From NCBI GenBank assembly GCA_021798575.1, contig JAJZGI010000006.1, positions 1 to 61,606 of the forward strand: a stretch of DNA of 61,606 nucleotides, in the 5' to 3' direction. Positions 20,193 to 50,260 of the stretch are shown piece by piece; position 1 is the first letter of the stretch; every line of letters begins with the position of its first letter. This stretch comes from Pseudomonadota bacterium. Lineage in GTDB: Bacteria; Pseudomonadota; Alphaproteobacteria; Acetobacterales; Acetobacteraceae. The notes beneath the pieces are model-generated. The model did not search any database, had not been told where the DNA came from, and saw only the letters and a program-made list of their open reading frames with translations. Made by a program: the position numbers and the translations under genes.

Positions 20193-24353
<4,161 letters not shown>

Positions 24354-24405
24354 TCATCACCCTTAAAGTGCCGGGTACGGGCCCGCGCCCGCACCCGGCG
24401 AAAGA

Positions 24406-28593
<4,188 letters not shown>

Positions 28594-35745: not shown

Positions 35746-37028
35746 AAAAACTGCTCGCCGCCGCCTTGGTCTTCGCCTCGCTCCACGGCGCACCAGCCCT
35801 GGCACAGAATGCGCCACAGCTCGCCCCCACGCCCGACAGCGCCAGCATCGCCGCCATCGTCAACGGGGAGGTCATCACCAGCCAGGATGTGGAAGACCGG
35901 GCGCGGCTGCTCGCCGTCTCCATCGGCCTGCCACCGACCGGCCAGCTGCTGGCGCGGCTGGAACCGCAGGTCACCAACCTGCTGATCGACCAGACGCTCA
36001 AGCTGCAGGAGATCAACAAGCTCGGCATCGTCGTCCATGAGTCGGACATCATCGCCGCCATCAACCATATCGAACAGAATAATAACCTGCCGCCCGGCGG
36101 GCTGCGCCTGAAGCTGGCGGGAGTCGGTATCCCCTACACCACCCTTGTCGCCCAGTTGCGTATAGAGCTGGGCTGGCAATCCGTGCTGCACCAGATCCTC
36201 GGCCCGGGCCTGCAACCCACCGCGGGGGACATGCATGCCGAGAAAACCGCGCTGCGGGCCGAGCTCGGCACGACGCAGTATCACATCGCTGAAATTTTCA
36301 TCCCCGTGTCGAACCCTTTGAGCGACAAGTCGGCGCAGGATTTCGCCACCACGGTGATCACCCAGCTGCGCTCTGGCGCGCCATTCCCGATCATCGCCGC
36401 GCAGTTCAGCCAGGGGCCGACCGCGCTGCAAGGCGGGGACCTTGGCTTCGTCCAGCTCAGCCAGCTCGACCCTTCGGTTGCCGCCGTGGTCACCACCATG
36501 CCCGTCGGCGCCATCAGCGACCCGGTGCGCGTGCCCGGCGGTTATGACATCGTGCAGCTGCTCGATACCCATGATATCGGCAACAGCAAGCAGACCATCC
36601 TCTCATTGCGCCAGGCTTTCGCGCCCTATCCCACCATCACCAACGGCCAGGTCGGGCCGGCGCAGGTCGCCGTCATCAACCATCTCATCCAGGCCGCACA
36701 CCAGGCGCATTCCTGCGCCGATATCGCGGCGCTGAACGCCCAGCTGGGCAACGCGCAACCCGCCGACCCCGGGCCGGTGAACCTCGCCACCGTCACCCCG
36801 CCGGCATTCCAGAATATCCTGGCAAACCTCGTCCCCGGCCAGCTCAGCCAGCCGCTGGTCGCGCAGAACGGCGTCTCGGTCGTCATGCTGTGCAGCAAAA
36901 AACAACAGGCCGAGAGCCTGCCGTCGGATACAGACATCACCAACATCATCATCAACCGCCGGGTTGAGATGGAATCCCACCAGCTGCTCGACCAGTTGCG
37001 GCACCAGTCGATCATCACGCAGAACTAG
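35742..37028 (+). CDS. surA: periplasmic chaperone/peptidyl-prolyl isomerase SurA
   Basis: A 428-residue protein with a signal peptide (MKKLLAAALVFASLHGAPALA), an N-terminal SurA chaperone domain (VNGEVITSQDVEDRARLL then helices to about 190) and one clear parvulin domain (about 185-285, with QYHIAEIFIPV, PFPIIAAQFSQG and LQGGDLGFVQ). A second parvulin domain looks degenerate. It escorts outer-membrane proteins such as LptD, consistent with the ATGA overlap with lptD. Confidence 0.9.
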   Translation: MKKLLAAALVFASLHGAPALAQNAPQLAPTPDSASIAAIVNGEVITSQDVEDRARLLAVSIGLPPTGQLLARLEPQVTNLLIDQTLKLQEINKLGIVVHESDIIAAINHIEQNNNLPPGGLRLKLAGVGIPYTTLVAQLRIELGWQSVLHQILGPGLQPTAGDMHAEKTALRAELGTTQYHIAEIFIPVSNPLSDKSAQDFATTVITQLRSGAPFPIIAAQFSQGPTALQGGDLGFVQLSQLDPSVAAVVTTMPVGAISDPVRVPGGYDIVQLLDTHDIGNSKQTILSLRQAFAPYPTITNGQVGPAQVAVINHLIQAAHQAHSCADIAALNAQLGNAQPADPGPVNLATVTPPAFQNILANLVPGQLSQPLVAQNGVSVVMLCSKKQQAESLPSDTDITNIIINRRVEMESHQLLDQLRHQSIITQN

Positions 37029-37177: not shown

Positions 37178-39490
37178 ATGCCTGCCAAAAAGGTCCGACC
37201 CTGCATGAACGACACGCCGCGCAGCCCCGGTTCGGGCGCGCATCCGGGGCAGGCCGCCACCAACCCGGATATCGCCGCCCTGAACGACGCCGCCATCGGC
37301 CTGACGCCGACGCTGGAATCGCGCTTGGCCGCAGTGATGAATGTCGCACGCTACCACGGCGTGGAGATGAACCCGGAGACCCTGCGACTGCGGCGGGACG
37401 AGCCCGCGTCACCCCCGGTATCGATCGAGTGGCTGCGCGAGGCCGGGCTGTGGGCACGCGGCGCGCCTTTGAACTTCCGCCAGCTGATGAAAATAGACGA
37501 CCCGGCGCCGATCGTCCTGCTGCTCGATGACGGTGGCGCGGCGCTCGTCGTGGGCCGCAACCGCGAGCAGCAGGTGCTCCTCCTACGCGACCCACGCAGC
37601 CCGCGCAGCGAACCCGCCGTGCCGGTCGATGAACTCCGGCTGAAGCAGGTGTGGAGCGGCGGCACGTTGCTGGCCCGCGCCACGCGCGGCGGGGTGGAGG
37701 ATGAACCACCCTTCAACTTCGCCCTCATCGCCCGGATGGTCTGGACCGACAAAAAAATCCTGAGGGATATCGCCATCGCCTCCGTCACCATCACCATCCT
37801 CAGCATCATCCCCATCCTCATCGTGATGCGCACGATCGGCACCGTCATCCAGTATCACAGCGTCGCCACGCTCGAGCTCGTCACCGTGCTGCTGATCGTC
37901 GCGGTCTTCTTCGAGATGCTGCTGAGCTGGGGGCGCAAGCTGCTGGAGGTGGTGATGGCCGCCAAGCTCGACGCGCGGCTGAACCTGATGATCTTCGACC
38001 GGCTGCTCGCGTTGCCGATCGAGTTTTTTGAGCGCGAGCAGGCCGGCGTGCTGTCCTATAAAATCTCCCAGGTTTATAAGGTGCGGCAGTTTCTCACCGG
38101 CCGGCTCATGAACACCTTCATCGACATGTTCATGGTCGCCCTGCTGTTGCCGCTACTGTTCTATATGGACGCCACGCTGGCCTGGACCATCCTGATCGCC
38201 GCCGCCATGATCGCGTCGATCATCGGCGTCTTTCTGCGGCCCATGGGCGCCATGACCAGCCGGATCATCGCCGCCGAATCCGCCAAGAACTCGGTGATGG
38301 TGGAGAGCGTCTATGGTATCCGCACCGTGAAGGCCCTGGCGCTGGAGCCCACCCGCGCGGCGGACTGGGACCGCAAGGTGGCCCACACGGCGGATCTCAA
38401 CATCCGGGCCAGCCAGCTCGCCAACTGGCCCGCCACGCTCGTGATGCCCCTGCAACGCTACAGCCAGTATGGCGTGATGATCCTGGGCTCCTACATCGCG
38501 CTCAACTCCAACAATCCGGTAGACGCGGGCACCCTGTTTGGCTTCATGATGCTGGGCGGGCGCGTCGCCGGGCCGCTCGTCAGCCTGGCCGGGGTCATGG
38601 AGCATGTGCAGGAGGCCCAGGCCGCGGTCTACCAGGTCGCCTCCGTGCTCAACCGCCCGAATGAAAGACGCGCCCTCACCCACGGCCTGCGCCCCCGGTT
38701 CGAGGGCGCCATCGAGTTCGATGACGTGACCTTCCGCTATGAGGGCACCAAAACCCCGGCCCTGGATAGAATGAGCTTCAAAATCCCGGCCGGCACCATG
38801 CTGGGGCTGGTCGGCCGCTCCGGCTCGGGCAAATCCACCGTCACGAGGCTCTTGCAGGGCATCAACCGGGACTATTCCGGCGCCATAAAAATCGACGGCA
38901 ACGACATGCGTGAGATCAACCTGCGCCATCTGCGCAAGAATTTCGGCATGGTGTTGCAGGATAATTTTCTGTTCCGTGGCTCGGTGCGGGAGAATATCCT
39001 GGCCGGGCGCCCTGGCCTGTCGTTCGAGGATGCGGTGCAGGCCGCCCGGCTCGCCGGCGCCGAGGAATTCATCGAGCGCCTGCCCCAAGGCTACGACACC
39101 TTCATCCAGGAGGGCTCACCCAACCTCTCCGGCGGGCAGAAGCAGCGCCTCGCCATCGCGCGCGCCATCGTCTCGGACCCTCGGGTATTGATTTTGGATG
39201 AGGCGACCTCGGCGCTCGACCCGGAGAGCGAAGCGCTGGTCAACGCCAACCTGCTACGCATCGCCTCGGGCCGCACCATGGTCATCGTCTCGCACCGGCT
39301 CTCCTCGTTGATCGACTGTGACCTGATCATGGTACTGGACCATGGCCGGACGATGGATATCGGCACGCATCACGAGCTGGTGGAGCGCTGCGCCATCTAT
39401 CGTCACCTCTGGCTACAGCAGAACCGCCACCTCGACCCGGAAGGAAACGCCTATGCCAAGCCCGCTCCGGCGCTTAACCCTGGGGAGTAG
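37178..39490 (+). CDS. type I secretion ABC transporter
   Basis: A 770-residue HlyB-like exporter. Residues about 45-170 resemble the C39-peptidase-like domain but lack the catalytic cysteine (Val-Ala-Arg-Tyr-His replaces it), so it should bind rather than cleave substrate. The transmembrane domain covers about 190-480 (six hydrophobic segments, with VVMAAKLDARLNLMIFDRL). The ATPase has Walker A GRSGSGKST (about 545), signature LSGGQKQRLAIARA (about 649) and Walker B VLILDEATSALD. The ATG at 37178 lacks a Shine-Dalgarno; the ATG at 37205 is an alternative. Works with the HlyD downstream; no TolC-type gene is nearby. Confidence 0.9.
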   Translation: MPAKKVRPCMNDTPRSPGSGAHPGQAATNPDIAALNDAAIGLTPTLESRLAAVMNVARYHGVEMNPETLRLRRDEPASPPVSIEWLREAGLWARGAPLNFRQLMKIDDPAPIVLLLDDGGAALVVGRNREQQVLLLRDPRSPRSEPAVPVDELRLKQVWSGGTLLARATRGGVEDEPPFNFALIARMVWTDKKILRDIAIASVTITILSIIPILIVMRTIGTVIQYHSVATLELVTVLLIVAVFFEMLLSWGRKLLEVVMAAKLDARLNLMIFDRLLALPIEFFEREQAGVLSYKISQVYKVRQFLTGRLMNTFIDMFMVALLLPLLFYMDATLAWTILIAAAMIASIIGVFLRPMGAMTSRIIAAESAKNSVMVESVYGIRTVKALALEPTRAADWDRKVAHTADLNIRASQLANWPATLVMPLQRYSQYGVMILGSYIALNSNNPVDAGTLFGFMMLGGRVAGPLVSLAGVMEHVQEAQAAVYQVASVLNRPNERRALTHGLRPRFEGAIEFDDVTFRYEGTKTPALDRMSFKIPAGTMLGLVGRSGSGKSTVTRLLQGINRDYSGAIKIDGNDMREINLRHLRKNFGMVLQDNFLFRGSVRENILAGRPGLSFEDAVQAARLAGAEEFIERLPQGYDTFIQEGSPNLSGGQKQRLAIARAIVSDPRVLILDEATSALDPESEALVNANLLRIASGRTMVIVSHRLSSLIDCDLIMVLDHGRTMDIGTHHELVERCAIYRHLWLQQNRHLDPEGNAYAKPAPALNPGE

Positions 39491-40871
39491 CCCGCGCGCC
39501 GTGGCACGGGGCGGGCCCGAGGCGCTGCCCCTGGTCGCGCTGGAGTTCCAGTCGCCCACGGCGGCCATCATCGCGACCCCCGTGCCGCGCATGGCGGGCT
39601 ACACCAATTATTTCGTCACCGCGCTGGTGTTCAGCATGCTGCTCATCGCGGGCACCATGCACACGGATAAAATCGTCGCCGCCAATGGCGAGCTGGTCTC
39701 CAGCGCGCCCAACTCCACCATCCAGGCGTTCAACGCCACCTCCATCGTGCAGAGTATCGACGTGCATTCCGGCGAGCTGGTCAACAAGGGCCAGTTGCTG
39801 GCCACGCTCAACCCGACCTACGCCACCGCCGACCTCACCTCGCTCACGCAGCAGCAACAGCTCTATTCCGCCGAGGTCGCCCAGCTCCAGGCGCAGGAGA
39901 ATGGCAAGCCCTATGTGCCGGACCCGGCCAATCCGCAATCCGCCCTGCAGGCGCAGACCTACAACCAGCAGGTCGGCCAGTTTCAATTCACGATGCAGGA
40001 CGATGCGCAAAAGATCAGCGAGCTGAAGACCGAGATTGCGGGCTATGACGGCCAGGCGGCCTATTACCGGCAACGGCTCGGTATCGCCACGAATGTCGAA
40101 AACATGCGTAAATCCCTGCAAAAAATGCAAGTGGGCAGCAGGTTGGATACGCTAGCCGCCACCGATGAGCGGGTGAATATCCAGGCCGAACTCTCGAACG
40201 CTGTCTCCTCTGCCGCCGCCGATGCGCGCCAACTCGCCGCCCAGCAGGCCGAGCGCGCGGGCTACGCCGAGCAATGGAAGGCGACCGTCTCCCAGCAGCT
40301 CGCCACCGCCATCGATAATCTGGCGCAGGCGCAGCAGCAGCTCACCAAGGCGAGGCTGGCGGACCAGTTGGTCGCCCTCACCGCGCCGCAGGACGCCATC
40401 GTGCAATCCATCGCTTCGGTATCCGCGGGCTCCATCCTGCAAGCTGGGCAGACGCTGATGGAACTCGCCCCCGTGGACGCGCCCCTCACGGTCGAGGCGG
40501 ATATCCAGGCCGACGAGTCCGGCTATGTGCATGTCGGGAACCGGGTGAACATCAAATTCGACACGCTGCCGTTTTTGCAGTTCGGCACCGCGCGGGGCAC
40601 CGTTGTCTCCATCAGCCCGGAGAGCTTCAACCCGCTCGACCAGCAGGCCGCCGCCACCAATGGCGCGCCGCTGCCCGGCACACCGCGAACCCTGTACTAC
40701 AAGACCGAGATCGCGCTCGATGTGCTGAACCTGCATAACGTGCCGCCCGGCTTCCGGCTGGTGCCGGGGATGCCGCTGGAGGCGGATATGATGGTAGGGA
40801 CGCGGACCATCCTGGGCTATTTCCTGCAACAGATGATGCCGGTGGCCTATAACAGCCTGCATGAGCCCTGA
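39453..40871 (+). CDS. HlyD-family periplasmic adaptor
   Basis: A 472-residue membrane-fusion protein. A short cytosolic N-terminus is followed by one transmembrane helix (about 50-68), a biotinyl-lipoyl-like half (IVQSIDVHSGELVNKGQLLATL), a long Gln/Ala-rich coiled coil (about 125-320) and the second lipoyl half with LTAPQDAIVQSIASVSAGS. It links the inner-membrane exporter to an outer-membrane channel. The start at 39453 has AAGGA upstream and overlaps the ABC gene by 38 bp. Confidence 0.9.
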   Translation: MPSPLRRLTLGSSPRAVARGGPEALPLVALEFQSPTAAIIATPVPRMAGYTNYFVTALVFSMLLIAGTMHTDKIVAANGELVSSAPNSTIQAFNATSIVQSIDVHSGELVNKGQLLATLNPTYATADLTSLTQQQQLYSAEVAQLQAQENGKPYVPDPANPQSALQAQTYNQQVGQFQFTMQDDAQKISELKTEIAGYDGQAAYYRQRLGIATNVENMRKSLQKMQVGSRLDTLAATDERVNIQAELSNAVSSAAADARQLAAQQAERAGYAEQWKATVSQQLATAIDNLAQAQQQLTKARLADQLVALTAPQDAIVQSIASVSAGSILQAGQTLMELAPVDAPLTVEADIQADESGYVHVGNRVNIKFDTLPFLQFGTARGTVVSISPESFNPLDQQAAATNGAPLPGTPRTLYYKTEIALDVLNLHNVPPGFRLVPGMPLEADMMVGTRTILGYFLQQMMPVAYNSLHEP

Positions 40872-40891
40872 GACAGGAATTTAGGGTAGGG

Positions 40892-42634
40892 ATGCGCCTG
40901 CAATCCAAGCTCACGGACCGCCTGGCCGCCCGCAGCCCGCAAGGTGCGCTGGCCCGCGCCCGGACGTTGCAGAGTGAGCGCCAGCACGCCCGCGCCTTCA
41001 AACTCTTCAGCCTCGCCGCATCGGCCGGAATCACCGAGGCCGAGCGCGCGCTCGGCCTCTATTATCTGAGCGGCCAGGGCGTGCCGCCCAACACCACCCA
41101 GGCCGCGCGCTGGCTCGGCCTCGCCGCTGAAAAAAACGACATCGAATCCCAGCGCCAACTCGCCACCCTGAGTTTGTTGGGTACAGCCAGCCCGGCAGGC
41201 GGCCTGTTCACGGCGGGCGCATCATCCGGCGCGGATTTCAACGCCGCCCTGCGCTGGGCGCTGCCCGCAGCCACGGCGGGAGATGTCGAATCCCAGGTGC
41301 TCATGGGCTTCATCCACATGGTCGGCCCGGGCTCGCTGCGCGACAACGACAAAGCCATCGAATGGTTCGCCAAGGCCGCCGCTACGGGTTCGCCGCAGGG
41401 CCATCTGGGCGTGGGCACGCTCAGCCTGTACCGCGCGGACACCGATGCGAAGACCTTCGCCGCGCTGGCGCATATCCGCGCCGCAGCGGAGGCCGGCTTG
41501 ACTGCCGGGCATCACTATCTGGCCTTCGTCCATGAGCACGCCATCGGCGTGCAGGGCGATCCCAGCCTCGCGACGCAGCACTATGCCCTGGCAGCCAATG
41601 GCGGCATCCGAGACGCCCAGACCCAATATGGCTACCGGCTGCTGCACGGCATCGGCGCCAAAGCCAACCCGGTGGAAGGTGAAACCTGGCTGCGCCGGGC
41701 TGGGCTCGCGGGGGACGCGCAGGCGGCCGCATTGGTCGCGGGCATCTATCTCGAAGGCGGGGAGCTGCCCCCCAGTTTCGCGGAGGCGGCCAACTGGTTT
41801 CGCCTCGCCGCCGAGGCCGGGCACAGCGGCTCGGCGCGGGCACTGGGCCTGTTCTACCTCACCGGCACGGGTGTCGCGCGGGACGCCGATGCGGCCGCCA
41901 TCTGGTTCCGCCAGGCCGCCCAGGGGGGTGACACGCTGGCCCAGTGCGACCTCGCGACCCTGCTGCTGAGCGGTCGCACCCGCCCTAACTTCACCGAGAT
42001 TACGCCGGTGCATGAATGGTTCGAGAAGGCCGCCGAATCGGGCGACCTCATCGCCGCCTTTAACTACGCGGTATGCCTTGCCCGGGGACTGGGCATGGCC
42101 CAGGACGATGCAAGGGCTGCGATATATTTTCGCCGCGCGGCGGAGGGCATCGTGAACGCGCAGTACTGGTACGGCACGCTGCTGCTCGAAGGCCGCGGCG
42201 TGGCGACGGACCCTGAAGAGGCCAGGATATGGCTGCAAAGAGCCGCCGATTTCGGCGCGGCGGACGCGCAGGTCAGCCTCGCGCTGCTACATCTGACCGG
42301 CCAGGGCGGCCCGGCGGACGCGGCCCGCGCCCGGGACCTCTATGAACAGGCCGCCGCCCAGGGCCATGTGGAGGCGATGTTCGCGCTGGGTGTTCTATAT
42401 GGCGGCGGGCACGACCTCCCGGCGGACCGCGCCCGCTCGCTCGCCTGGTATTGGGCGGCGGCGGAAAAAAACCACGCCAGATCCGCCCTGATGCTGGGCC
42501 GATATCTCAACCTCGGCATCGCCACCGCGCGGGACCCGGAGGCCGCCCTGCACTGGTTCACCCGGGCGCTGCAGGCGGGCATCGCGGAGGCCGCGCCGGA
42601 GATCGCGGCGCTGCAACAAGTTGCCACGCCGTAA
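40892..42634 (+). CDS. Sel1-type repeat protein
   Basis: A 580-residue protein made of about 13 Sel1-like repeats (consensus A..LG..Y..G.GV..D...A..WF..AA..G), for example ARALGLFYLTGTGVARDADA. There is no signal peptide or membrane segment, so a cytoplasmic adaptor or scaffold is likely. It lies between the secretion genes and the glycosyltransferases and its last bases overlap the next gene. Sel1 proteins often organise protein complexes; the partner here is unknown. Confidence 0.85.
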   Translation: MRLQSKLTDRLAARSPQGALARARTLQSERQHARAFKLFSLAASAGITEAERALGLYYLSGQGVPPNTTQAARWLGLAAEKNDIESQRQLATLSLLGTASPAGGLFTAGASSGADFNAALRWALPAATAGDVESQVLMGFIHMVGPGSLRDNDKAIEWFAKAAATGSPQGHLGVGTLSLYRADTDAKTFAALAHIRAAAEAGLTAGHHYLAFVHEHAIGVQGDPSLATQHYALAANGGIRDAQTQYGYRLLHGIGAKANPVEGETWLRRAGLAGDAQAAALVAGIYLEGGELPPSFAEAANWFRLAAEAGHSGSARALGLFYLTGTGVARDADAAAIWFRQAAQGGDTLAQCDLATLLLSGRTRPNFTEITPVHEWFEKAAESGDLIAAFNYAVCLARGLGMAQDDARAAIYFRRAAEGIVNAQYWYGTLLLEGRGVATDPEEARIWLQRAADFGAADAQVSLALLHLTGQGGPADAARARDLYEQAAAQGHVEAMFALGVLYGGGHDLPADRARSLAWYWAAAEKNHARSALMLGRYLNLGIATARDPEAALHWFTRALQAGIAEAAPEIAALQQVATP

Positions 42635-45299
42635 TTCGCCGCTCGGCCCCGCTGCCGCCGCCTGGATGCGGGGGCGCGCGGGTGGGCAGCAGGCCATCCA
42701 GTGGCTGGAACGCGCCGCCCGGTTGGCGCCGAACGATCCGCGAATCGCGCTGGAGCTGGCGCAGGCGCGGCTGAACAGCGGCACGGCAGCCAACGTGACG
42801 GAGGCCGCCACCGCCTACGCGCAACTGGCCGAGAAGCACGAAGCACTGCCCGCCTGGCTCGGCCTCGCGATGGCCCGCCACCGGCTGGGGGACGCAGCCG
42901 GCGCTGCGGCGGCGCTCGAATCCCTGCTCGCCCGTCACTACATCCCCGAGGAGCCCGGTTTTGCCGAGCTCGCCCACAACATCGCGATCGCGGCGGGCCG
43001 GCCGCTGGGCGGCAATGGCCCCGTCATCACCCGCACCGAGGGCGTGGTCGCCCCGGCGAAATCGGGGCTCATCGGCTGGGCCACCTGCCGCGTCGCGCCG
43101 CGGACCCCGCCGCAGCTCAAGCTCCATGATGCGACCGGGGCGCAAAGAACGGTCAAATTTGGCAGAGTTCTGCCTGCGGACGATGATTCACCTCTGCTGG
43201 AGCGCCACAGTTTCAGAATCTCCCACCGCCAGCTCCATGGCCTCACGCCACCCTTTCACCTGATCACGGCGGACGGGGGCGAGCTTATGGGCAGTCCGGT
43301 CGACCCCGCTATCCTGCAACTTCCGCCAACCCCGGCCCGCCGACGCGGCAGGCCACCCGCCGAGCCGCCCGCACCGCGCCCGTTTTGCGTCATCATCCCC
43401 GTGTTCCGTGGCCTGCGGGAGACGCAGGATTGCCTGCACGCGCTGCAATCCGCCCTGGCGCCGGGTACGCCGTGCATCGTGGTGGATGACGCGACACCTG
43501 AGCCAGCCCTCGCCGCCTGGCTGGACGCGCAGGCGGCAGCCGGGCGCTTCACCCTGCTGCGCCACGCACAAAACCGGGGTTTTCCCGCCGCGGTGAATAC
43601 CGGGCTCGCCGCCGCGCACAGCCGGGATGTGCTGCTGCTCAACAGCGACACGCTGGTGCCCGCCCGCGCGGTGGAAACCCTCCGCCGGGTGGCCTACGCA
43701 CGGGCCGATACCGGCTCGGTCACGCCGCTCTCCAACGCCGCCAGCATCCTCAGCTACCCCAACCGCCGGGGTGGCAACGCCGCACCCGACCTGCCCGGAA
43801 CGGAGCGCCTGAACGTCCTCGCCCATGCGGCGAATGGCGATAGATCCGTCGAGATCCCCACCGGCGTCGGCTTCTGTATGTATCTGCGACACGACTGCCT
43901 GGAAGCGACCGGCGGCTTCCGCGCCGAGGTCTTCGCCCAGGGCTACGGCGAGGAGAACGATTGGTGCCTGCGCGCCCGGCATCTGGGATTTGCCCCTCGC
44001 GCTGCGCCGGGCGCCTATGTCGCACATCTGGGCGGCGTGTCCTTCGGCGCGGCGGCGCAGGCGCTCATGGGTCGCAACCTCGCGCTGCTGAACGCGCTCT
44101 ATCCCGGCTATCATGCGCTCGTCATGGCGCATATCGCGGCGGACCCGCTGCGCCCGGCGCGCGCGCGGATCGACGCGCTGCGCCTGCGCGCCAGCCACTC
44201 CGGGCAGGAGGCGGTCCTGTTGGTGTCGCACAACCATGGCGGCGGCGTGGCGCGCCAGGTGGCCCGGCATATGGCGGCGCTGCGCGCGCAGAACCTCCGG
44301 CCTCTGCTGCTCACCACCCAATTCCCTGAAAACCCGACGCGAACGCCCTACCCCTGGCCGGCCTGCCTCAGCGAGGGTGCGCCAGACGATACAACGAATC
44401 TCACCTTTAATCTCGCGCAGGATGAACCCGCCCTGCTGGCCCTGCTGCATGACTTGCGCGTTTCCTCGGTGGCGCTGCACCACAGCCTCGGCCATCATCC
44501 GGGCGTGCGCGGGCTCGCGGCACGGCTCACCGTCCCCATGGATATCTTCATCCACGACTACGGCGCCTTCTGCCCGCGCGTGAACCTGCTCGCTCCGGAG
44601 GATAAAGCCACGCCGGCGCGCTATTGCGGCGAGCCCGATTTGAGCGCCTGCACCGCCTGCTGCGCGCGGGCGCGGGCGGGCATCCCGGAAAATCTATCGC
44701 CGCGCGCCCTGCTGGCGCGCTCCGCGCGGGAGTTCGCCACGGCGCGCTCCGTCATCGCGCCATCGGCGGACGCCGCCCGGCGCATCAACCGGCATTTTCC
44801 CGGTATCAAACCCGCAATCACCCCGTGGGAGGACGACCTGATCCCGTCCAGCCTCCGCCCACCGGCTGACGGCCCGCGCCGAGTCGTCATCATCGGCGGG
44901 ATCAGCGCGGCCAAAGGACTGGAGCCGCTCATCGCCTGCGCGCGGGACGCCGCGCAGCGCTCCCTCGGCCTCGAATTCATCCTGATCGGCGCCAGCGCCG
45001 ATGACGCCAGGCTGCTGGACGCCGGGGTCTTCGTCACCGGCCACTATGCCGAGGGCCAGGCCACCGGCCTGATTACCAGCTTTCAGCCGGACCTCGTGTT
45101 CCTGCCCTCGATCTGGCCTGAGACCTGGTGCTTCGCCTTGAGCGAGGCCTGGCGCGCCGGACTGTACGCCATTGCGTTCAATCTTGGTGCCCAGGCAGAG
45201 CGCATCCACGCCACCGGGCGCGGCGCCACGCTGCCGCTGGGGTTGCCCGCCGCCCGGGTGAACGATTTTTTGCTGAGCTGGTCCCCCGCACCGCCGTAG
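42621..45299 (+). CDS. two-domain glycosyltransferase (GT2 + GT4)
   Basis: An 892-residue protein: TPR-like helices (about 20-110), a linker, a GT2 domain starting near 253 (PFCVIIPVFRGLRETQDC, then VVDDAT and LLLNSDTLVP with the metal-binding acidic pair) and a GT4-like domain from about 528 (LVSHNHGGGVARQVARH, then FIHDYGAFCPR and a CGEPDLSACTACC cysteine cluster, ending with a FLPSIWPETWCFALSEA donor-binding motif). Start is uncertain: TTG at 42621 overlaps the Sel1 gene, and ATG at 42666 is the first Met. Possibly glycosylates the secreted product of the cluster; inference. Confidence 0.85.
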   Translation: MPRRNSPLGPAAAAWMRGRAGGQQAIQWLERAARLAPNDPRIALELAQARLNSGTAANVTEAATAYAQLAEKHEALPAWLGLAMARHRLGDAAGAAAALESLLARHYIPEEPGFAELAHNIAIAAGRPLGGNGPVITRTEGVVAPAKSGLIGWATCRVAPRTPPQLKLHDATGAQRTVKFGRVLPADDDSPLLERHSFRISHRQLHGLTPPFHLITADGGELMGSPVDPAILQLPPTPARRRGRPPAEPPAPRPFCVIIPVFRGLRETQDCLHALQSALAPGTPCIVVDDATPEPALAAWLDAQAAAGRFTLLRHAQNRGFPAAVNTGLAAAHSRDVLLLNSDTLVPARAVETLRRVAYARADTGSVTPLSNAASILSYPNRRGGNAAPDLPGTERLNVLAHAANGDRSVEIPTGVGFCMYLRHDCLEATGGFRAEVFAQGYGEENDWCLRARHLGFAPRAAPGAYVAHLGGVSFGAAAQALMGRNLALLNALYPGYHALVMAHIAADPLRPARARIDALRLRASHSGQEAVLLVSHNHGGGVARQVARHMAALRAQNLRPLLLTTQFPENPTRTPYPWPACLSEGAPDDTTNLTFNLAQDEPALLALLHDLRVSSVALHHSLGHHPGVRGLAARLTVPMDIFIHDYGAFCPRVNLLAPEDKATPARYCGEPDLSACTACCARARAGIPENLSPRALLARSAREFATARSVIAPSADAARRINRHFPGIKPAITPWEDDLIPSSLRPPADGPRRVVIIGGISAAKGLEPLIACARDAAQRSLGLEFILIGASADDARLLDAGVFVTGHYAEGQATGLITSFQPDLVFLPSIWPETWCFALSEAWRAGLYAIAFNLGAQAERIHATGRGATLPLGLPAARVNDFLLSWSPAPP

Positions 45300-45313
45300 T
45301 CCACCATGCACCT

Positions 45314-45341
45314 TTGCCGATGCTGCATATTTCATTAAGAT
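45314..45341 (+). promoter_or_regulatory. weak candidate promoter for the ChW-like gene
   Basis: TTGCCG and TAAGAT are 16 bp apart in the AT-rich 80-bp gap before the gene at 45380. Matches are only 4 of 6 at each box, so this is tentative. Confidence 0.25.
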
Positions 45342-45379
45342 GATTTAACGATACGCCGATATCAACCCGAGGAACGCTC

Positions 45380-46234
45380 ATGGCTTCAGTCAAACCCACC
45401 CCGTCTCCAGCCGACGCCGGGCCAGCCGCGCCGCCCGCCGAGACCTCGCTCCAGGAGCTCAAGGTCACCGGCCATATGATGTCCCTGCCGACGGGGCTGT
45501 TTTGCTTCGTCAACGAGGCCAACCCGACCAGCGCGCGATACCATGGCATGCCGGGCGTGCGCGTCTCGCCGCCACCCTCGGGCGGACAGAATTTGGAGAT
45601 CGTCGGCTTCCGTCCGGATGGCTGGCTGGACGCCAGGGGAGACGCCGCTTTAGTACGGGTCCATAGGGGCCCGGCCCAGGTGCTGGTCACCATCTACCAG
45701 CATCCCAACCAGCCCGGCGCAGCACCCAAGCTACAGGTCCGCCAGTTGCTGAGCGAGAACGACGGGCCGCAGGCCCCAGTGCCCGTCGCCGCGCCGGCGC
45801 CTCAGCGCATGGACTTTCTTGCCCATATTCAGGGCCAGGGCGACGTCGGCGCCCGGTTCGGGGAGTGGCTAGGCCAGCGCGGCGGCACCAGCTGGGTCGA
45901 GGGCTTCGCCATCTCCGCACCCGAGGGCGTCGCATCCTCGGATATCACCTACCAGGCCGTGCTCGGCCGCGGCTGGCTCAGCCCCTGGGTCGAGGCCGGG
46001 GAGTATTGCGGCTCCCGCGGCATGGCGCTGCCGCTGCTCGGCCTGCGCATCCGCCTCACCGGCCAGGCCGCGGAGCAATACGACCTCACCTACAGCGCCT
46101 CCTTCGTCGGCGGCGCCACCGCCGGGCCGGTCGGCAACGACGAGACCTGCGAGGGCGACACGCTCGCCCCGCTGGAGGCATTGCAGGTCACCCTCACACC
46201 GCGCACGCGCAAAGCAACCAAGGCAAAGCGCTGA
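45380..46234 (+). CDS. protein with ChW-like repeats, function unknown
   Basis: A 284-residue protein with a Pro/Ala-rich start and a beta-rich N-terminal half (about 25-130). The C-terminal half has three segments patterned like clostridial hydrophobic-W (ChW) repeats: from residue 144 (HIQGQGDVGARFGEWLG), from 188 (YQAVLGRGWLSPWVEAGEYC, then GLRIRLTG) and from 234 (YDLTYSASFVGG, ending LEALQVTL). No signal peptide; type I export by the upstream genes would fit. ATG has GAGGA at seven bases. I do not know a function; a cell-surface or carbohydrate-binding role is inference. Confidence 0.7.
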   Translation: MASVKPTPSPADAGPAAPPAETSLQELKVTGHMMSLPTGLFCFVNEANPTSARYHGMPGVRVSPPPSGGQNLEIVGFRPDGWLDARGDAALVRVHRGPAQVLVTIYQHPNQPGAAPKLQVRQLLSENDGPQAPVPVAAPAPQRMDFLAHIQGQGDVGARFGEWLGQRGGTSWVEGFAISAPEGVASSDITYQAVLGRGWLSPWVEAGEYCGSRGMALPLLGLRIRLTGQAAEQYDLTYSASFVGGATAGPVGNDETCEGDTLAPLEALQVTLTPRTRKATKAKR

Positions 46235-46241
46235 ACCGGCT

Positions 46242-47531
46242 GTGAACTTCCTCTTCGTCCACCAGAACTTCCCCGGCCAGTATCTGCACATCATCCGCAG
46301 CCTCCTGGCCGACAATGCGGCGCGCGACGGCACGCACCAGATCGTCTTCATGACCGAGCCGAACCGCAACAATATGAGCGGGGTGCGCAAGGTCACCTAC
46401 GCCCGGCCGCCCTCCGTCTCCGCCAGCGTGCATCTGGATGCCCGCGAATTCGAGATGGCGACGCGGCGCAGCCAGGCCGCCTATAAGGGCGCGTTGCAGA
46501 TCAAGGCGCTGGGCTACAGGCCGGACATCATCATCGGCCACCACGGTTGGGGGGAGATGCTCAATTTGACCGACGCTTTTCCCGGCGTGCCGATCCTCGG
46601 GTATTTTGAATTCTATTATCGTATTCTCGGCGCGGATGTGAATTTCGACCCCGAATTCCCCATGGCCGAGGCGCGCTATTCCGCTGTGCGCGGCAAAAAT
46701 GCCGTTAACCTGCTGGCGCTTTCGCTCGAGCAATATGGCCAGTCCCCGACCCGGTGGCAGCATGGCACCTACCCGAAATGGACCCACAAGCAGATCCGCC
46801 TGCTGCATGAGGGCGTCGATCTGGAGGTCTGCAAACCGGACCCGCTGGCCCGCAAAACACCGCTCACCGTCGGCAGCCTCACGGTTAAACCGAGGCAGAA
46901 GCTGCTCACCTATGTCGCGCGCAACCTGGAGCCGTATCGCGGCTTCCACACGCTCATGCGCGCACTCCCGGAGATCCTGAAGGCACGGCCTGATGTCATC
47001 GTCTCGATGGTGGGCGGTGACGAGGTGAGCTACGGCGCGACCCCCGCCACCGGTGGCTCCTGGCGCGAGGTTATGTTGCGCGAGATGGGCGACCGACTCG
47101 ACCTCAGCCGCGTGCATTTTCTTGGCAAGCTCCCCTATGAGCAGCATCTCGCTTTGCTCAAACGCTCCGATGCCCATGTATACCTATCGTACCCGTTCGT
47201 CGCCTCATGGTCCCTGCGGGAGGCGCTCGCCATCGGCTGCGTGGTGGTGGGCGGGGACACGGAGACCGTCACGGAATTTGTCACACACGGGGAAAACGGG
47301 CTGATCGCGCCGACGCTCGACGCCGCCGGGCTCGCCCGCACCATCCTCACCGCGCTCGGGGACAAAAAACTGGCGGCCCGCCTGCGCGCCGGCGCGCGGG
47401 CCTATGCCGAGCGGCATCTGGACCTCCATGATTATATCGCCAGCTACCGCGCCTATATCGAGGAGATCACCGGCCAGAGATTGCTCCCGCCAACGCCCGC
47501 GCGGCGCAGAATCCGTCCCTCACTTGGATAA
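46242..47531 (+). CDS. family 4 glycosyltransferase
   Basis: A 429-residue GT4 enzyme starting at GTG with NFLFVHQNFPGQYLHII, the N-terminal signature of the Glyco_trans_4_3 type. HHGWGEMLNLTDAFPG and the C-terminal nucleotide-sugar region (LLTYVARNLEPYRGFHT, VYLSYPFVASWSLREALAIG) are intact, with the usual Glu in the donor pocket. No membrane segment. It starts seven bases after the ChW-like gene, so the two are co-translated; its end overlaps the convergent SCO gene by 12 bp. Confidence 0.88.
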   Translation: MNFLFVHQNFPGQYLHIIRSLLADNAARDGTHQIVFMTEPNRNNMSGVRKVTYARPPSVSASVHLDAREFEMATRRSQAAYKGALQIKALGYRPDIIIGHHGWGEMLNLTDAFPGVPILGYFEFYYRILGADVNFDPEFPMAEARYSAVRGKNAVNLLALSLEQYGQSPTRWQHGTYPKWTHKQIRLLHEGVDLEVCKPDPLARKTPLTVGSLTVKPRQKLLTYVARNLEPYRGFHTLMRALPEILKARPDVIVSMVGGDEVSYGATPATGGSWREVMLREMGDRLDLSRVHFLGKLPYEQHLALLKRSDAHVYLSYPFVASWSLREALAIGCVVVGGDTETVTEFVTHGENGLIAPTLDAAGLARTILTALGDKKLAARLRAGARAYAERHLDLHDYIASYRAYIEEITGQRLLPPTPARRRIRPSLG

Positions 47532-48158
47532 ATGGCCCCTCAGCACCGAAGTGAGCTGAGCAGCGGTGATGGTGGCCGGAAACAGATTCAAAAACCGGCC
47601 ATCGCGCCCCATCAGATAGATATAGGTCGAGTGACTGATCACGCTGGCGCCGGATGCCTCGGCGTTATTCGCGTCGAACGCCACGTCATACTCATGCGCG
47701 ACCCGGACGATCTGCGCGCGGCTCCCTGTCAGCCCGACCAGCTCCGGGCCGAATTTCAGCAGATAGGCGCGCAGCACCGGCGGCGTGTCGCGCGCCGGGT
47801 CGATCGTGATGAAAATCGGCACCACTTTACGCGCCAGTGGCCCCAGCGCATGCATCGCGAGCGCTATTTTTTGCAGCGTCAGCGGGCATTCATCCGGGCA
47901 ATGACTATAGCCGAAAAACACCAGCATGTAGCGGCCCCGGTAGGTTGCATCGCTCACCATGTGGCCAAGCTGATCGGTGAGGTGGAACGCACCGCCGATC
48001 GGCGCACCCGGTGGGATGGCGGAGTTCACCGTGCTGGCCATCTGACCATCATTCGTGGGTGCGCCGTGCCATACCAATGCCGGGTCGATCGCGACCAGTG
48101 TCACCAACACCGCCAGCACGACGCTGAATGCCAATAAGATTTTACGCGACCGACTCAT
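47520..48158 (-). CDS. SCO1/SenC-family copper/thiol protein
   Basis: A 212-residue protein anchored by an N-terminal helix (LLAFSVVLAVLVTLVAI). The thioredoxin-fold domain has the copper-binding CPDEC (in FFGYSHCPDECPLTL) and the distal His in SVISHSTYIYL. Family members deliver copper to, or reduce, the CuA site of cytochrome oxidase. Its ATG overlaps the stop of the upstream reductase gene by four bases. Confidence 0.9.
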   Translation of the reverse strand: MSRSRKILLAFSVVLAVLVTLVAIDPALVWHGAPTNDGQMASTVNSAIPPGAPIGGAFHLTDQLGHMVSDATYRGRYMLVFFGYSHCPDECPLTLQKIALAMHALGPLARKVVPIFITIDPARDTPPVLRAYLLKFGPELVGLTGSRAQIVRVAHEYDVAFDANNAEASGASVISHSTYIYLMGRDGRFLNLFPATITAAQLTSVLRGHLSK

Positions 48159-50260
48159 CGGCCACCTGCCCGCCGCAGCGCATCCATCACCACGCCAGGC
48201 GTCAACAGGCTCGGCAGAACGATCCCCCGCGGCGCGCCCGGCCCGTACACTACGTCCAGCGGCACGCCGTAACGATCAAAACGCTCGAGATACGCGGTGA
48301 TCACAGGGCTCGGGCGCGTCCAGTCACCGCGCATGGCGGTCACATCCGCGGCCCGCAACGCCGGGGCCACCGGGCTGCGCTCCAGAACCGTCAGCGCATT
48401 GACCTTGCAGATCAGGCACCAGGCGGCGGTGATATCCACAAACACCACCCTGTTGCGGGCGACGAACCCGGGGATTCGCGCCTCATCAAAGGGCTGCCAT
48501 ATCGTGCTCACGGCGGGTGCTGCCACGCTCTGCTGTATCAAGCCCGGCAATATCCCCGCACTCAACCCAAGCCCGACCGCCAGGCCGGTCAGCGCCGGGC
48601 GCCACCGCTTTAGCAAACGTTTTTGCTGCCGCAGGAACAGCACCAGCAGAAAGATCCCCAAAACCACCCCGGTGATGATGGCGGCGTTTGGCGAGACCAC
48701 GGCGCTGATCACCCAGACCAGCCACATCGCCGTGCCTAGTAGCAGGAAGCCCAGAACAACCTGCAATCTGACCATCCATGCGCCGGGCTTTGGCAGCCAG
48801 CCTACCAGCCTGGGGAGCGCCGCCACCACCAAATAGGGCAGCGCCATGCCCAGCCCGAGTGCCGTAAAAATCCCGATGATCGTCATCGGCCCGCGCGCCA
48901 GGGCGAAGCCCACCGCCGTGCCGATGAACGGCGCCGTGCAGGAGGCCGCCAGAACGCTCGCCAACACGCCGGTGAGGAAGGCAGCCAGGTGCTTTTTTGG
49001 CCCCACACCCAGCGCACCTACAAAGCCCGGCACGCCGATGGGCACCCACTCCCACAGGCTGGCCGCGAACAGGCTCGTCACCACCGCCATCGCGCCCAAA
49101 AACCATGGCTGCTGAAACTGTATCCCCCAGCCGATCGCGGCACCGGCCGCTTTCAATAAAACCAACGCCAGCGCGATCACCAGGAACGAGGCCATCACCC
49201 CGGCCGCTGTGGCTATCAGGCTGCGGCGGAACTCGCGCAGCGCCTGCCCCTTGGCCTCCGCCAGCCCGAATAGTTTGAGCGACAACACAGGCAGAACGCA
49301 TGGCATCACGTTCAAAATCAGCCCGCCCAGCAGCGCGATCAGGATGATCAACGGGTCGAACCCGCCCGCGATACGCGGCATCTCCCCCAACACCGGAACG
49401 GCGCTGAACGTCGCCGCCTGACCATTCGCCTCGACCGTGAATGTCAGCGGCCGCCCCGCCACCGCGCTCGGCTTGCTGTCCGCCAGAAATACGCTCAGAA
49501 CCGCGCGATGGCCCGTCCCGCCCAGTTGAATTTTTGGGCTCCCCGGCGTCGGCCCCAGGGTCCCCTCCACGAACATATCCGGGGCCTCAATCGCGCTCTG
49601 GCTGCGCAGCGAGACCGATAATTCCGCGCCAGGGCCGCCCTTGGGCGAGACGATCACGGATGCGAGCGATAATCCGGCGTCGGTGAGGCTGCCTGGAATC
49701 CGCGTCCAAGCCTGGGCGATGAGCGGCGCTCGTGCGCCCGGTGTCGCCAGGCCCGCCGGCAGCCGCAGCGTGAATGCCGCCGTGTAGGGAACGCAGATAT
49801 CCTTGCAGGCGGCATAATGCACCAGCGCATGGAGCAGAACCGGCCCGCCCGGCTGGCGCATCGTCACCGCGATCGGCAGGACGACGTTCTTCTCATACCC
49901 CTGGGTGATCAGCCCATCGAGCCGGAAGCGTTTTGGCGCCGACCAGTATATGGCAGCGGACTTCAGGTTCTGCGAGCCACTCCAGTCGATGGATGGCGGG
50001 AATCCCGCGTCGCCCGGGCTGCGCCAATAGGCGTGCCAACCCGGTGCCAGGCGGATCTGCAACGCCGCGTCCAGCTGCCCCGCCGAGCCCGTGGCCCGCA
50101 CTGCGGTCATCATCCGCGCCGCCGCGTGGGCATCGCCGATCCATGGCGTGCTCGCGGCGAATACTGGGGAGGCTGCAAAAAACAGGCACACGACCAGCAC
50201 CATCGTTCGGAATGTCGTTCTGATCGAAATGCCCATATGCAAACCCGCCCCTGTCATCAT
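48155..50260 (-). CDS. DsbD/ScsB-type transmembrane thiol reductase
   Basis: A 701-residue protein: signal sequence, an N-terminal DsbD-alpha-like domain (with HYAACKDICVPY, about residue 150), a membrane domain of about eight helices with paired cysteines in NVMPCVLPVLSLK and AASCTAPFIGTA, and a C-terminal thioredoxin-like domain with AAWCLICKVNAL. It passes electrons from cytosolic thioredoxin to periplasmic thiol proteins, probably the SCO protein encoded next. ATG at 50236 is an alternative start with GGGG upstream. Confidence 0.88.
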   Translation of the reverse strand: MMTGAGLHMGISIRTTFRTMVLVVCLFFAASPVFAASTPWIGDAHAAARMMTAVRATGSAGQLDAALQIRLAPGWHAYWRSPGDAGFPPSIDWSGSQNLKSAAIYWSAPKRFRLDGLITQGYEKNVVLPIAVTMRQPGGPVLLHALVHYAACKDICVPYTAAFTLRLPAGLATPGARAPLIAQAWTRIPGSLTDAGLSLASVIVSPKGGPGAELSVSLRSQSAIEAPDMFVEGTLGPTPGSPKIQLGGTGHRAVLSVFLADSKPSAVAGRPLTFTVEANGQAATFSAVPVLGEMPRIAGGFDPLIILIALLGGLILNVMPCVLPVLSLKLFGLAEAKGQALREFRRSLIATAAGVMASFLVIALALVLLKAAGAAIGWGIQFQQPWFLGAMAVVTSLFAASLWEWVPIGVPGFVGALGVGPKKHLAAFLTGVLASVLAASCTAPFIGTAVGFALARGPMTIIGIFTALGLGMALPYLVVAALPRLVGWLPKPGAWMVRLQVVLGFLLLGTAMWLVWVISAVVSPNAAIITGVVLGIFLLVLFLRQQKRLLKRWRPALTGLAVGLGLSAGILPGLIQQSVAAPAVSTIWQPFDEARIPGFVARNRVVFVDITAAWCLICKVNALTVLERSPVAPALRAADVTAMRGDWTRPSPVITAYLERFDRYGVPLDVVYGPGAPRGIVLPSLLTPGVVMDALRRAGGR

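What the first reader, a model, noticed from the sequence alone, without database searches (positions are those of the whole stretch)
37178..47531. Secretion-glycosylation cluster with ChW-like protein
Six plus-strand genes are packed with overlaps or short gaps: HlyB-type exporter, HlyD adaptor, Sel1 scaffold, GT2+GT4 enzyme, ChW-like protein and GT4 enzyme. The combination suggests that a protein is modified by sugar and exported, with Sel1 as scaffold. The exporter's C39-like domain lacks its cysteine, so the substrate would not be a cleaved double-glycine peptide. I know of no described system with this gene set.
Basis: inference. Interest (0 to 1): 0.7.

Follow-up and report, generated by a model that had tools for sequence, protein, structure and literature searches.

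The report
Sugar-and-export module for RTX proteins
A six-gene set, kept in the same order in many genera of one bacterial family, most likely attaches sugars to a repeat-rich protein inside the cell and then exports that protein through a dedicated transporter; no description of such a system turned up.

Summary
In detail: six plus-strand genes (HlyB-type exporter, HlyD, Sel1 protein, TPR-GT2-GT4 enzyme, ChW protein, GT4) fill 37178-47531. They form a real module: 43 of 50 related loci, from 27 genera by label, keep all six in that order. An RTX-type gene lies beside, or one gene from, ChW in 3 Acetobacteraceae loci and in 5 of 6 loci of other alphaproteobacterial families; one holds all seven parts within about 15 kb. 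In G682 the only RTX gene detected is next to the enzyme. In G682 and G652 ChW is fused to GT2-GT4, so ChW is probably an enzyme partner, not cargo. The window's genome has two RTX-like genes elsewhere and one type I HlyD above cut-off, this one. Best reading: RTX-like proteins are glycosylated in the cytoplasm, then exported by type I secretion, in logic like accessory-Sec adhesins. Linkage and architecture are shown; glycosylation and export are inferred. Against: no RTX gene is linked in the 43 loci, and 67 of 170 ChW genomes show no RTX-like match. Paper searches found no such system.

The parts
37178..39490 (+). HlyB-type ABC exporter, 770 aa, with N-terminal C39-like region without Cys
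   Evidence: Pfam ABC_membrane/ABC_tran; TIGR01846 HlyB 503 bits, below cut-off 725.55; aligns to HlyB structures over 50-747 at 3.5e-107, though ABCB1-type chains score higher; Walker, signature and switch motifs conserved; Cys count
39453..40871 (+). HlyD-family type I adaptor (start codon inferred)
   Evidence: TIGR01843 295 bits vs cut-off 208.65; only match above cut-off in this genome
40892..42634 (+). Sel1-repeat protein, 580 aa; no signal peptide apparent by eye
   Evidence: PF08238, 10 repeats, 3.3e-72; part of the full set in 43 of 50 loci
42621..45299 (+). Bifunctional glycosyltransferase: N-terminal TPR, GT2, C-terminal GT4; relatives in G682 and G652 are fused to ChW
   Evidence: fusions; LLNSDT and PETW motifs largely conserved in 45 sequences
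45380..46234 (+). ChW protein, 284 aa: two conserved parts, Pro/Ala-rich linker, basic C-terminal tail
   Evidence: PF07538 28.4 bits; in 170 of 249 Acetobacteraceae genomes; tail and linker; 9 of 385 class-level and 7 of 398 phylum-level genomes, own family included
46242..47531 (+). GT4-family glycosyltransferase (PF12000)
   Evidence: relatives at E<=1e-40 in 209 of 249 family genomes

Best explanation
The six genes encode a dedicated glyco-secretion module. In the cytoplasm the GT2-GT4 enzyme, its partner or domain ChW and the second GT4 enzyme put sugars on a Ser/Thr/Asn-rich, almost Lys/Arg-free RTX-type passenger without an apparent signal peptide; the TPR and Sel1 repeats would hold enzyme and passenger together. 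The HlyB-type exporter, whose C39-like region would dock but not cleave, and HlyD (with an outer-membrane channel from elsewhere) then export the passenger to the cell surface. In the Acetobacteraceae loci with the full set the passenger genes lie elsewhere; in the window's genome the candidates are C30:17379-18875 and C31:4-693. SHOWN: module conservation, RTX-ChW-GT linkage (with the exporter in two loci), GT-ChW fusion, passenger candidates, only one type I HlyD above cut-off. INFERRED: that glycans are transferred to the passenger, that it leaves through this exporter, and the Sel1 and ChW roles.
For: Fixed order in 43 of 50 loci; the next most widespread ORF cluster is in 14 of 51 loci. 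RTX gene (PF00353) beside or one gene from ChW in L071-L073 and in 5 of 6 followed loci outside the family. G168 (L072, L149): RTX, ChW, GT4, GT2, GT4, GT2, ABC, HlyD, Sel1 in one direction. L167: Sel1, GT4, methyltransferase, RTX, ChW-like, TPR-GT2-GT4, HlyD, ABC. In G682 all 6 PF00353 stretches lie in the one gene beside the GT::ChW fusion. A profile of Acidocella passengers alone finds four ChW-linked RTX proteins at 1.7e-18 to 1.3e-38, and none of 200 shuffled copies at E<=10. RTX-like genes at E<=1e-15 are in 88 of 249 family genomes, 84 of them with ChW; ChW is in 86 of the other 161 (still 2.4e-12 by Fisher without 8 source or congener genomes). One type I HlyD above cut-off and two passenger candidates in the window's genome. 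C30 passenger: 24.6% S+T, 0.8% K+R, no Cys.
Against: No direct evidence of glycosylation or export. No RTX-like gene was found in the stretches of the 43 full-set loci. Of the 8 loci with a linked RTX gene, the exporter pair was seen in 2 (G168, L167) and not in the stretches of the other 6. 67 of 170 ChW genomes have no RTX-like match even at E<=1e-6, and 24 genomes have such a match without ChW; genomes are related, so the test overstates independence. Acidocella passengers lack a PF00353 match. The RTX genes beside ChW in L175 and L176 do not match the passenger profile (0.77 and 7.6 for the two listed; L175's second gene not at all). RTX genes are numerous in several of these genomes (up to 138 stretches). 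ChW of L167 has no Pfam ChW match and is weak by profile (1.3e-7). ChW fold unresolved.
Confidence: 0.6

Rival explanations
1. The glycosyltransferases build a surface polysaccharide or LPS part, and the HlyB-HlyD pair separately exports RTX adhesins that bind this polysaccharide; the genes stay together because both products act at the surface.
For: GT2 and GT4 enzymes are the usual ones of polysaccharide clusters (recalled); NCBIfam similarities are to EpsE, PgaC and HpsN, and for Sel1 to ExoR and AlgK, all far below cut-offs; further GT genes lie in G168, and a double-GT2 protein lies nearby on the opposite strand in 7 loci.
Against: Beyond the six, no ORF cluster is in more than 14 of 51 loci. 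Other ABC genes downstream, merged into the exporter's cluster there, occur in 18 loci; the two tested read as an ABC-F-type protein and, beside a PhoU gene, a phosphate-type ATPase, not chain exporters. No conserved initiating transferase, flippase or polymerase was seen. The TPR domain in the GT and the GT::ChW fusion beside a sole RTX gene suggest a protein acceptor.
Confidence: 0.22
2. The ChW protein is itself the exported, sugar-modified product.
For: It sits inside the module, lacks an apparent signal peptide (by eye), has a Pro/Ala-rich linker and a ChW domain, which is a surface domain in clostridia (recalled; PF07538).
Against: It is fused to the GT2-GT4 enzyme in G682 and G652; its tail is Lys/Arg-rich and it shows no RTX match; a separate RTX protein lies beside or one gene from it in 8 loci.
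Confidence: 0.12
3. The exporter moves a glycolipid or small glycosylated metabolite, and the RTX association is incidental.
For: The ABC protein also resembles MsbA-type and NHLM exporters (below cut-offs), and ABCB1-type chains outscore HlyB in the PDB search.
Against: HlyD meets the type I adaptor model; full-length HlyB alignment including the N-terminal region; RTX linkage in several families.
Confidence: 0.05

Closest known systems
HlyB/HlyD type I secretion of RTX proteins (HlyA, RsaA, LapA types; names recalled)
   Same: ABC exporter with a C39-like region lacking Cys, plus HlyD adaptor; RTX-type passenger without apparent signal peptide; exporter and RTX gene linked in two relatives (G168, L167)
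   Different: Two glycosyltransferase genes, a ChW protein and a Sel1 protein are fixed parts; passenger gene unlinked in the 43 full-set loci; curated HlyB model cut-off not met
Accessory Sec (SecA2/SecY2, Asp1-3, GtfA/GtfB) export of serine-rich repeat glycoproteins in Gram-positives (abstract start and passages of PMC5578698 seen)
   Same: Logic: dedicated glycosyltransferases and carrier proteins with a dedicated exporter; intracellular glycosylation before export
   Different: A type I ABC exporter replaces SecA2/SecY2; an RTX-like passenger replaces the SRR adhesin; relation of the enzymes not tested
Glycosylated RTX proteins of cyanobacteria, oscillin and SwmA (passages of PMC3034196 seen)
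   Same: RTX proteins that carry or appear to carry sugar on the cell surface
   Different: The passages shown name no linked glycosyltransferase set; other phylum; relation not tested
ChW (clostridial hydrophobic W) proteins
   Same: PF07538 match above the gathering score
   Different: One match, no apparent signal peptide, alphaproteobacterial, fused to a glycosyltransferase in two relatives

Membership tests
Type I secretion system (HlyB-HlyD) | HlyD-family type I adaptor | tested here: met
   TIGR01843 295 bits, cut-off 208.65
Type I secretion system (HlyB-HlyD) | ABC exporter with fused transmembrane and ATPase domains | tested here: met
Type I secretion system (HlyB-HlyD) | N-terminal C39-like domain without catalytic Cys | tested here: inconclusive
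   Aligns with HlyB from residue 50 and weakly with 3zua (E 0.29); Pfam C39 gave no match in the window protein but did in the L167 relative (1.1e-4); no Cys at residues 40-64, two of 44 rows have one
Type I secretion system (HlyB-HlyD) | Curated HlyB subfamily model TIGR01846 | tested here: not met
   503 bits against cut-off 725.55; so it works like a HlyB exporter but is outside the subfamily as curated
Type I secretion system (HlyB-HlyD) | RTX passenger encoded with the exporter | tested here: inconclusive
   Not among the window's six products nor in the 43 full-set loci; met in G168 and L167; related RTX-like genes elsewhere in the window's genome
Type I secretion system (HlyB-HlyD) | TolC-type outer-membrane partner | not tested
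   No search for TolC was made
Double-glycine peptide (bacteriocin/NHLM) exporter | Cys peptidase domain and curated model | tested here: not met
   No Cys at residues 40-64; TIGR03796, TIGR03797 and TIGR01193 below cut-offs
Accessory Sec SRRP glyco-export system | SecA2/SecY2 translocase in the locus | tested here: not met
   None among the six gene products; exporter is ABC type; the rest of the genome was not searched for them
Accessory Sec SRRP glyco-export system | Cytoplasmic glycosylation of the passenger before export | not testable with these tools
   Needs glycoproteomics
ChW family (PF07538) | Pfam gathering score | tested here: met
   28.4 bits vs 22 for the window protein; met too in L064 (26.2) and L165 (30.9), below it in L072, L164 and L176, no match in L167 and L175
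Polysaccharide (Wzx/Wzy or synthase) cluster | Initiating transferase, flippase or polymerase as conserved members | tested here: not met
   Only the six genes are shared by most of 51 loci; next cluster in 14, a GNAT-like gene by eye on the opposite strand; downstream ABC genes tested are not chain exporters

The most novel reading that the evidence does not exclude
A previously undescribed glyco-type-I-secretion system of Alphaproteobacteria: a seven-part set in which a GT2-GT4/ChW enzyme complex, a second GT4 and a Sel1 protein glycosylate RTX-type passengers in the cytoplasm and hand them to a dedicated HlyB-HlyD exporter; a Gram-negative counterpart, evolved independently, of the accessory-Sec route for serine-rich adhesins, whose ChW marker is in 170 of 249 sampled Acetobacteraceae genomes.
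Probability: 0.5. Interest if true: 0.78.

Novelty: new variant of a known kind. Interest (0 to 1): 0.64.

Why it matters
RTX proteins and type I secretion are well studied, but sugar modification built into a type I export locus is, as far as the searches here reach, undescribed. The ChW marker gene is in 170 of 249 sampled Acetobacteraceae genomes, a family that includes acetic-acid bacteria and insect symbionts (recalled). If true, these bacteria make a dedicated set of glycosylated surface proteins by a route that the papers searched do not mention. It would give a function to the PF12000-type and ChW proteins of these bacteria, make the role of glycans in RTX folding or secretion testable, and offer a Gram-negative protein-glycosylation route.

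Tried and rejected
Chance neighbourhood: rejected by 43 of 50 loci with fixed order. PF00353 in the window's genome first gave one weak match below cut-off, in a gene that reads as ribB; the profile of ChW-linked RTX proteins then found the two candidates. Anti-phage system: PADLOC matches were to mad3, mad8 and a TPR model only. PHROGs: no match for ChW or an Acidocella passenger, one unknown-function match for the L073 RTX protein. ChW structure: the whole protein modelled poorly (pLDDT 62), the C-terminal half better (80.6); Foldseek found nothing at E<=0.001 for either, so the fold is unresolved. No solved-structure relative of ChW by sequence. The GT4 presence search was not used as evidence because weaker PF12000 relatives occur in genomes without ChW. 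One seed set by mistake held a stray antisense ORF (L073_15850); it was left out of A3, but the profile used for the scan held it. The weak class-level ChW hit in G596 (5.7e-4) was not followed. An order-level search (198 of 299) added no other family among the rows listed. A read of passages of an Asaia genome paper (PMC8156966) showed Sel1 and GT counts but no such cluster.
Full report
OBSERVATION. Small corrections: HlyD probably starts at 39453, and the GT2-GT4 ORF starts at TTG 42621. The exporter's N-terminal C39-like region has no Cys at residues 40-64; Pfam's C39 model itself did not match. The window is contig C44 of a 2.37-Mb, 95-contig assembly, 96.4% complete. A genus-mate's contig (G224:C2, 428052 bases) has the same length as the Acidocella aromatica record that holds L033, so the genus is most likely Acidocella.

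CONSERVATION. The ChW protein has relatives in 170 of 249 sampled genomes of the family. I compared 50 loci with the window's proteins by tblastn: 10 from named contigs and 40 stretches of up to about 20 kb, chosen by me for spread from the hits. The set ABC-HlyD-Sel1-GT2GT4-ChW-GT4, all in one direction and order, is in 43 of 50: 7 Acidocella-like contigs and 36 stretches from 26 other genera by the tool's labels. In some the GT2-GT4 match comes in two pieces, and in L080 the GT4 match does. Of the other 7, four (L032, L038, L040, L061) are cut by contig ends and three (L071-L073) have another arrangement. An ORF clustering that needed whole ORFs found all six in order in 39 of 51 loci, window included. 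Genes flanking the window's copy (LptD, SurA, SCO1, DsbD) matched none of the 50 loci at E<=1e-5, but many stretches reach only 0 to 1.7 kb beyond the exporter. Apart from the six, the most widespread ORF cluster is in 14 of 51 loci, on the opposite strand. That clustering merged other ABC genes with the exporter: 18 loci have one downstream, and the two tested are an ABC-F-type protein and an ATPase beside a PhoU gene. So the six genes behave as a unit.

THE MISSING SEVENTH PART. In the three odd loci an RTX-repeat protein of 402-507 aa, without an apparent signal peptide, lies beside the ChW gene or one gene away (PF00353 5e-18 to 4e-15). ChW searches found 9 of 385 genomes at class level and 7 of 398 at phylum level, own family included. 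Outside the family that is seven genomes. I followed six: G682, G652, G581, G676, G1056 and G1033; G596 (E 5.7e-4) was not followed. Five of six have an RTX gene beside ChW; the sixth, G652, is on a 5.4-kb contig filled by the glycosyltransferase genes. In G676 (L167) Sel1, GT4, a methyltransferase, RTX, ChW-like, TPR-GT2-GT4, HlyD and ABC lie within about 15 kb; its ChW is weak by profile (1.3e-7) and has no Pfam match. Counting both groups, 8 loci have a linked RTX gene; the exporter pair was seen in 2 of them (G168, L167) and not in the stretches of the other 6. In G682, all 6 PF00353 stretches of the 5.5-Mb genome are in the one gene next to the enzyme. In G1056, 26 stretches fall in five ORFs, two of which flank ChW. 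RTX genes are numerous in other genomes of the set (up to 138 stretches), so adjacency there counts for less.

CHW IS AN ENZYME PARTNER. In G682 (1324 aa: TPR, GT2, GT4, then ChW at 21.5 bits, just under the gathering score of 22) and in G652 (a frame of 1195 aa or more: GT2, GT4, then ChW at 30.9 bits) the ChW part is fused behind the enzyme. Such natural fusions usually mark proteins that work together (recalled). The separate ChW proteins have two conserved parts, a variable Pro/Ala-rich linker and a Lys/Arg-rich tail. No fold relative was found.

PASSENGER IN THIS GENOME. A profile from the three RTX proteins found one partial match in the window's genome and matches in 23 of 31 genomes of the genus. 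An enlarged profile found two in the window's genome: C30:17379-18875 (1.2e-100) and one cut by a contig end at C31:4-693 (2.2e-75). Acidocella passengers lack a PF00353 match over the cut-off, so the relation rests on profiles. A profile of Acidocella passengers alone matched L072, L073, L071 and L164 at 1.3e-38 to 1.7e-18, L166 and L167 at about 1e-6, none of 200 shuffled copies at E<=10, and of the three f70 RTX proteins L175's first at 0.77, L176's at 7.6 and L175's second not at all. hhalign of the Acidocella set against the four RTX proteins gave probability 99.8. The C30 passenger has 24.6% Ser+Thr, 0.8% Lys+Arg and no Cys. In 8 of 10 stretches around Acidocella passengers the gene lies near genes that read as rsmA and a chloride channel (names by eye), not near the exporter. 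The window's HlyD is the only match above the TIGR01843 cut-off in the genome: 295 bits, next 50. By exclusion it is the likeliest exporter for these passengers, within a 96%-complete assembly.

CO-OCCURRENCE. In the same 249 genomes, RTX-like genes at E<=1e-15 are in 88, of which 84 have ChW; of the 161 others 86 have ChW (Fisher 1.6e-13, not corrected for relatedness). Five of the profile's 16 source genomes are in this sample and the others are congeners of the window; leaving out eight such genomes gives 2.4e-12. Against this, 67 of 170 ChW genomes have no match even at 1e-6, and 24 genomes have one without ChW. Those genomes may use more divergent passengers, or the link may be looser than I propose. 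A scan with an early passenger profile found no RTX-like ORF in the stretches of the 43 full-set loci.

MECHANISM. Two GT enzymes, one with TPR repeats, plus a ChW partner and a Sel1 repeat protein, with a type I exporter and a Ser/Thr-rich RTX passenger, fit cytoplasmic glycosylation followed by type I export. The GT2 LLNSDT and GT4 PETW motifs are largely conserved (45 sequences). In the second GT4 gene the first Glu of the usual EX7E motif (recalled) is Phe, in a YPFVaSWSLREA context conserved in at least 90% of 48 sequences at most positions, which leaves its chemistry open. Known parallels: accessory-Sec SRR adhesins, glycosylated intracellularly and then exported (abstract start and passages of PMC5578698), and glycosylated cyanobacterial RTX proteins oscillin and SwmA (passages of PMC3034196). 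Neither is the same system.

LITERATURE. Searches for ChW with type I secretion and Acetobacteraceae, type I secretion with glycosyltransferase, Sel1 and Acetobacter, ChW, glycosylated RTX, Sel1 with RTX (20 of 47 papers listed) and S-layer with RTX listed no paper that by title or abstract start describes such a system. Only listings were seen, apart from passages of PMC3034196, PMC5578698 and PMC8156966. The library lacks most subscription journals.

VERDICT. A real, family-wide, apparently undescribed module. Its composition and RTX link are shown; glycosylation and export are the best inference (about 0.6).

Noticed in passing
G000:C30:17379-18875 (L154:9317-10882) and G000:C31:1-702 (L097): Two RTX-like, Ser/Thr/Gly/Asn-rich proteins with few Lys/Arg and no Cys, outside the window; no Pfam or NCBIfam match for the C30 one.
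   Followed up: partly
L164:4396-8367 (-) and L165:8-3595 (+): Natural fusion of a GT2-GT4 enzyme with a ChW part in two other alphaproteobacterial families.
   Followed up: yes
L175:5144-8330: ChW gene between two RTX genes, one of which carries a Hint_2 domain (PF13403, 1.6e-44).
   Followed up: no
L167:6067-8244 and L166:11461-13206: A gene between GT4 and RTX in both f51 loci, with a methyltransferase domain (PF13489, tested for L167 only); possibly a further modifier of the glycan or passenger.
   Followed up: no
window 46242-47531: Second GT4 enzyme: the first Glu of the usual EX7E motif is Phe within a conserved YPFVaSWSLREA context (48 sequences).
   Followed up: partly
window 33532-37028 and 47520-50260: The module lies between LptD-SurA and SCO1-DsbD genes; none of these matched in the 50 compared loci, though many stretches barely reach beyond the exporter.
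   Followed up: partly
L063:12579-15080 (-) and counterparts in 6 further loci: A double-GT2 protein (834-875 aa) on the opposite strand about 3 to 6 kb downstream of ChW; could belong to a separate surface-glycan locus.
   Followed up: partly
window 20193-28593 (-): RNA polymerase beta-prime and beta subunit genes on the opposite strand, about 5 kb before LptD.
   Followed up: no
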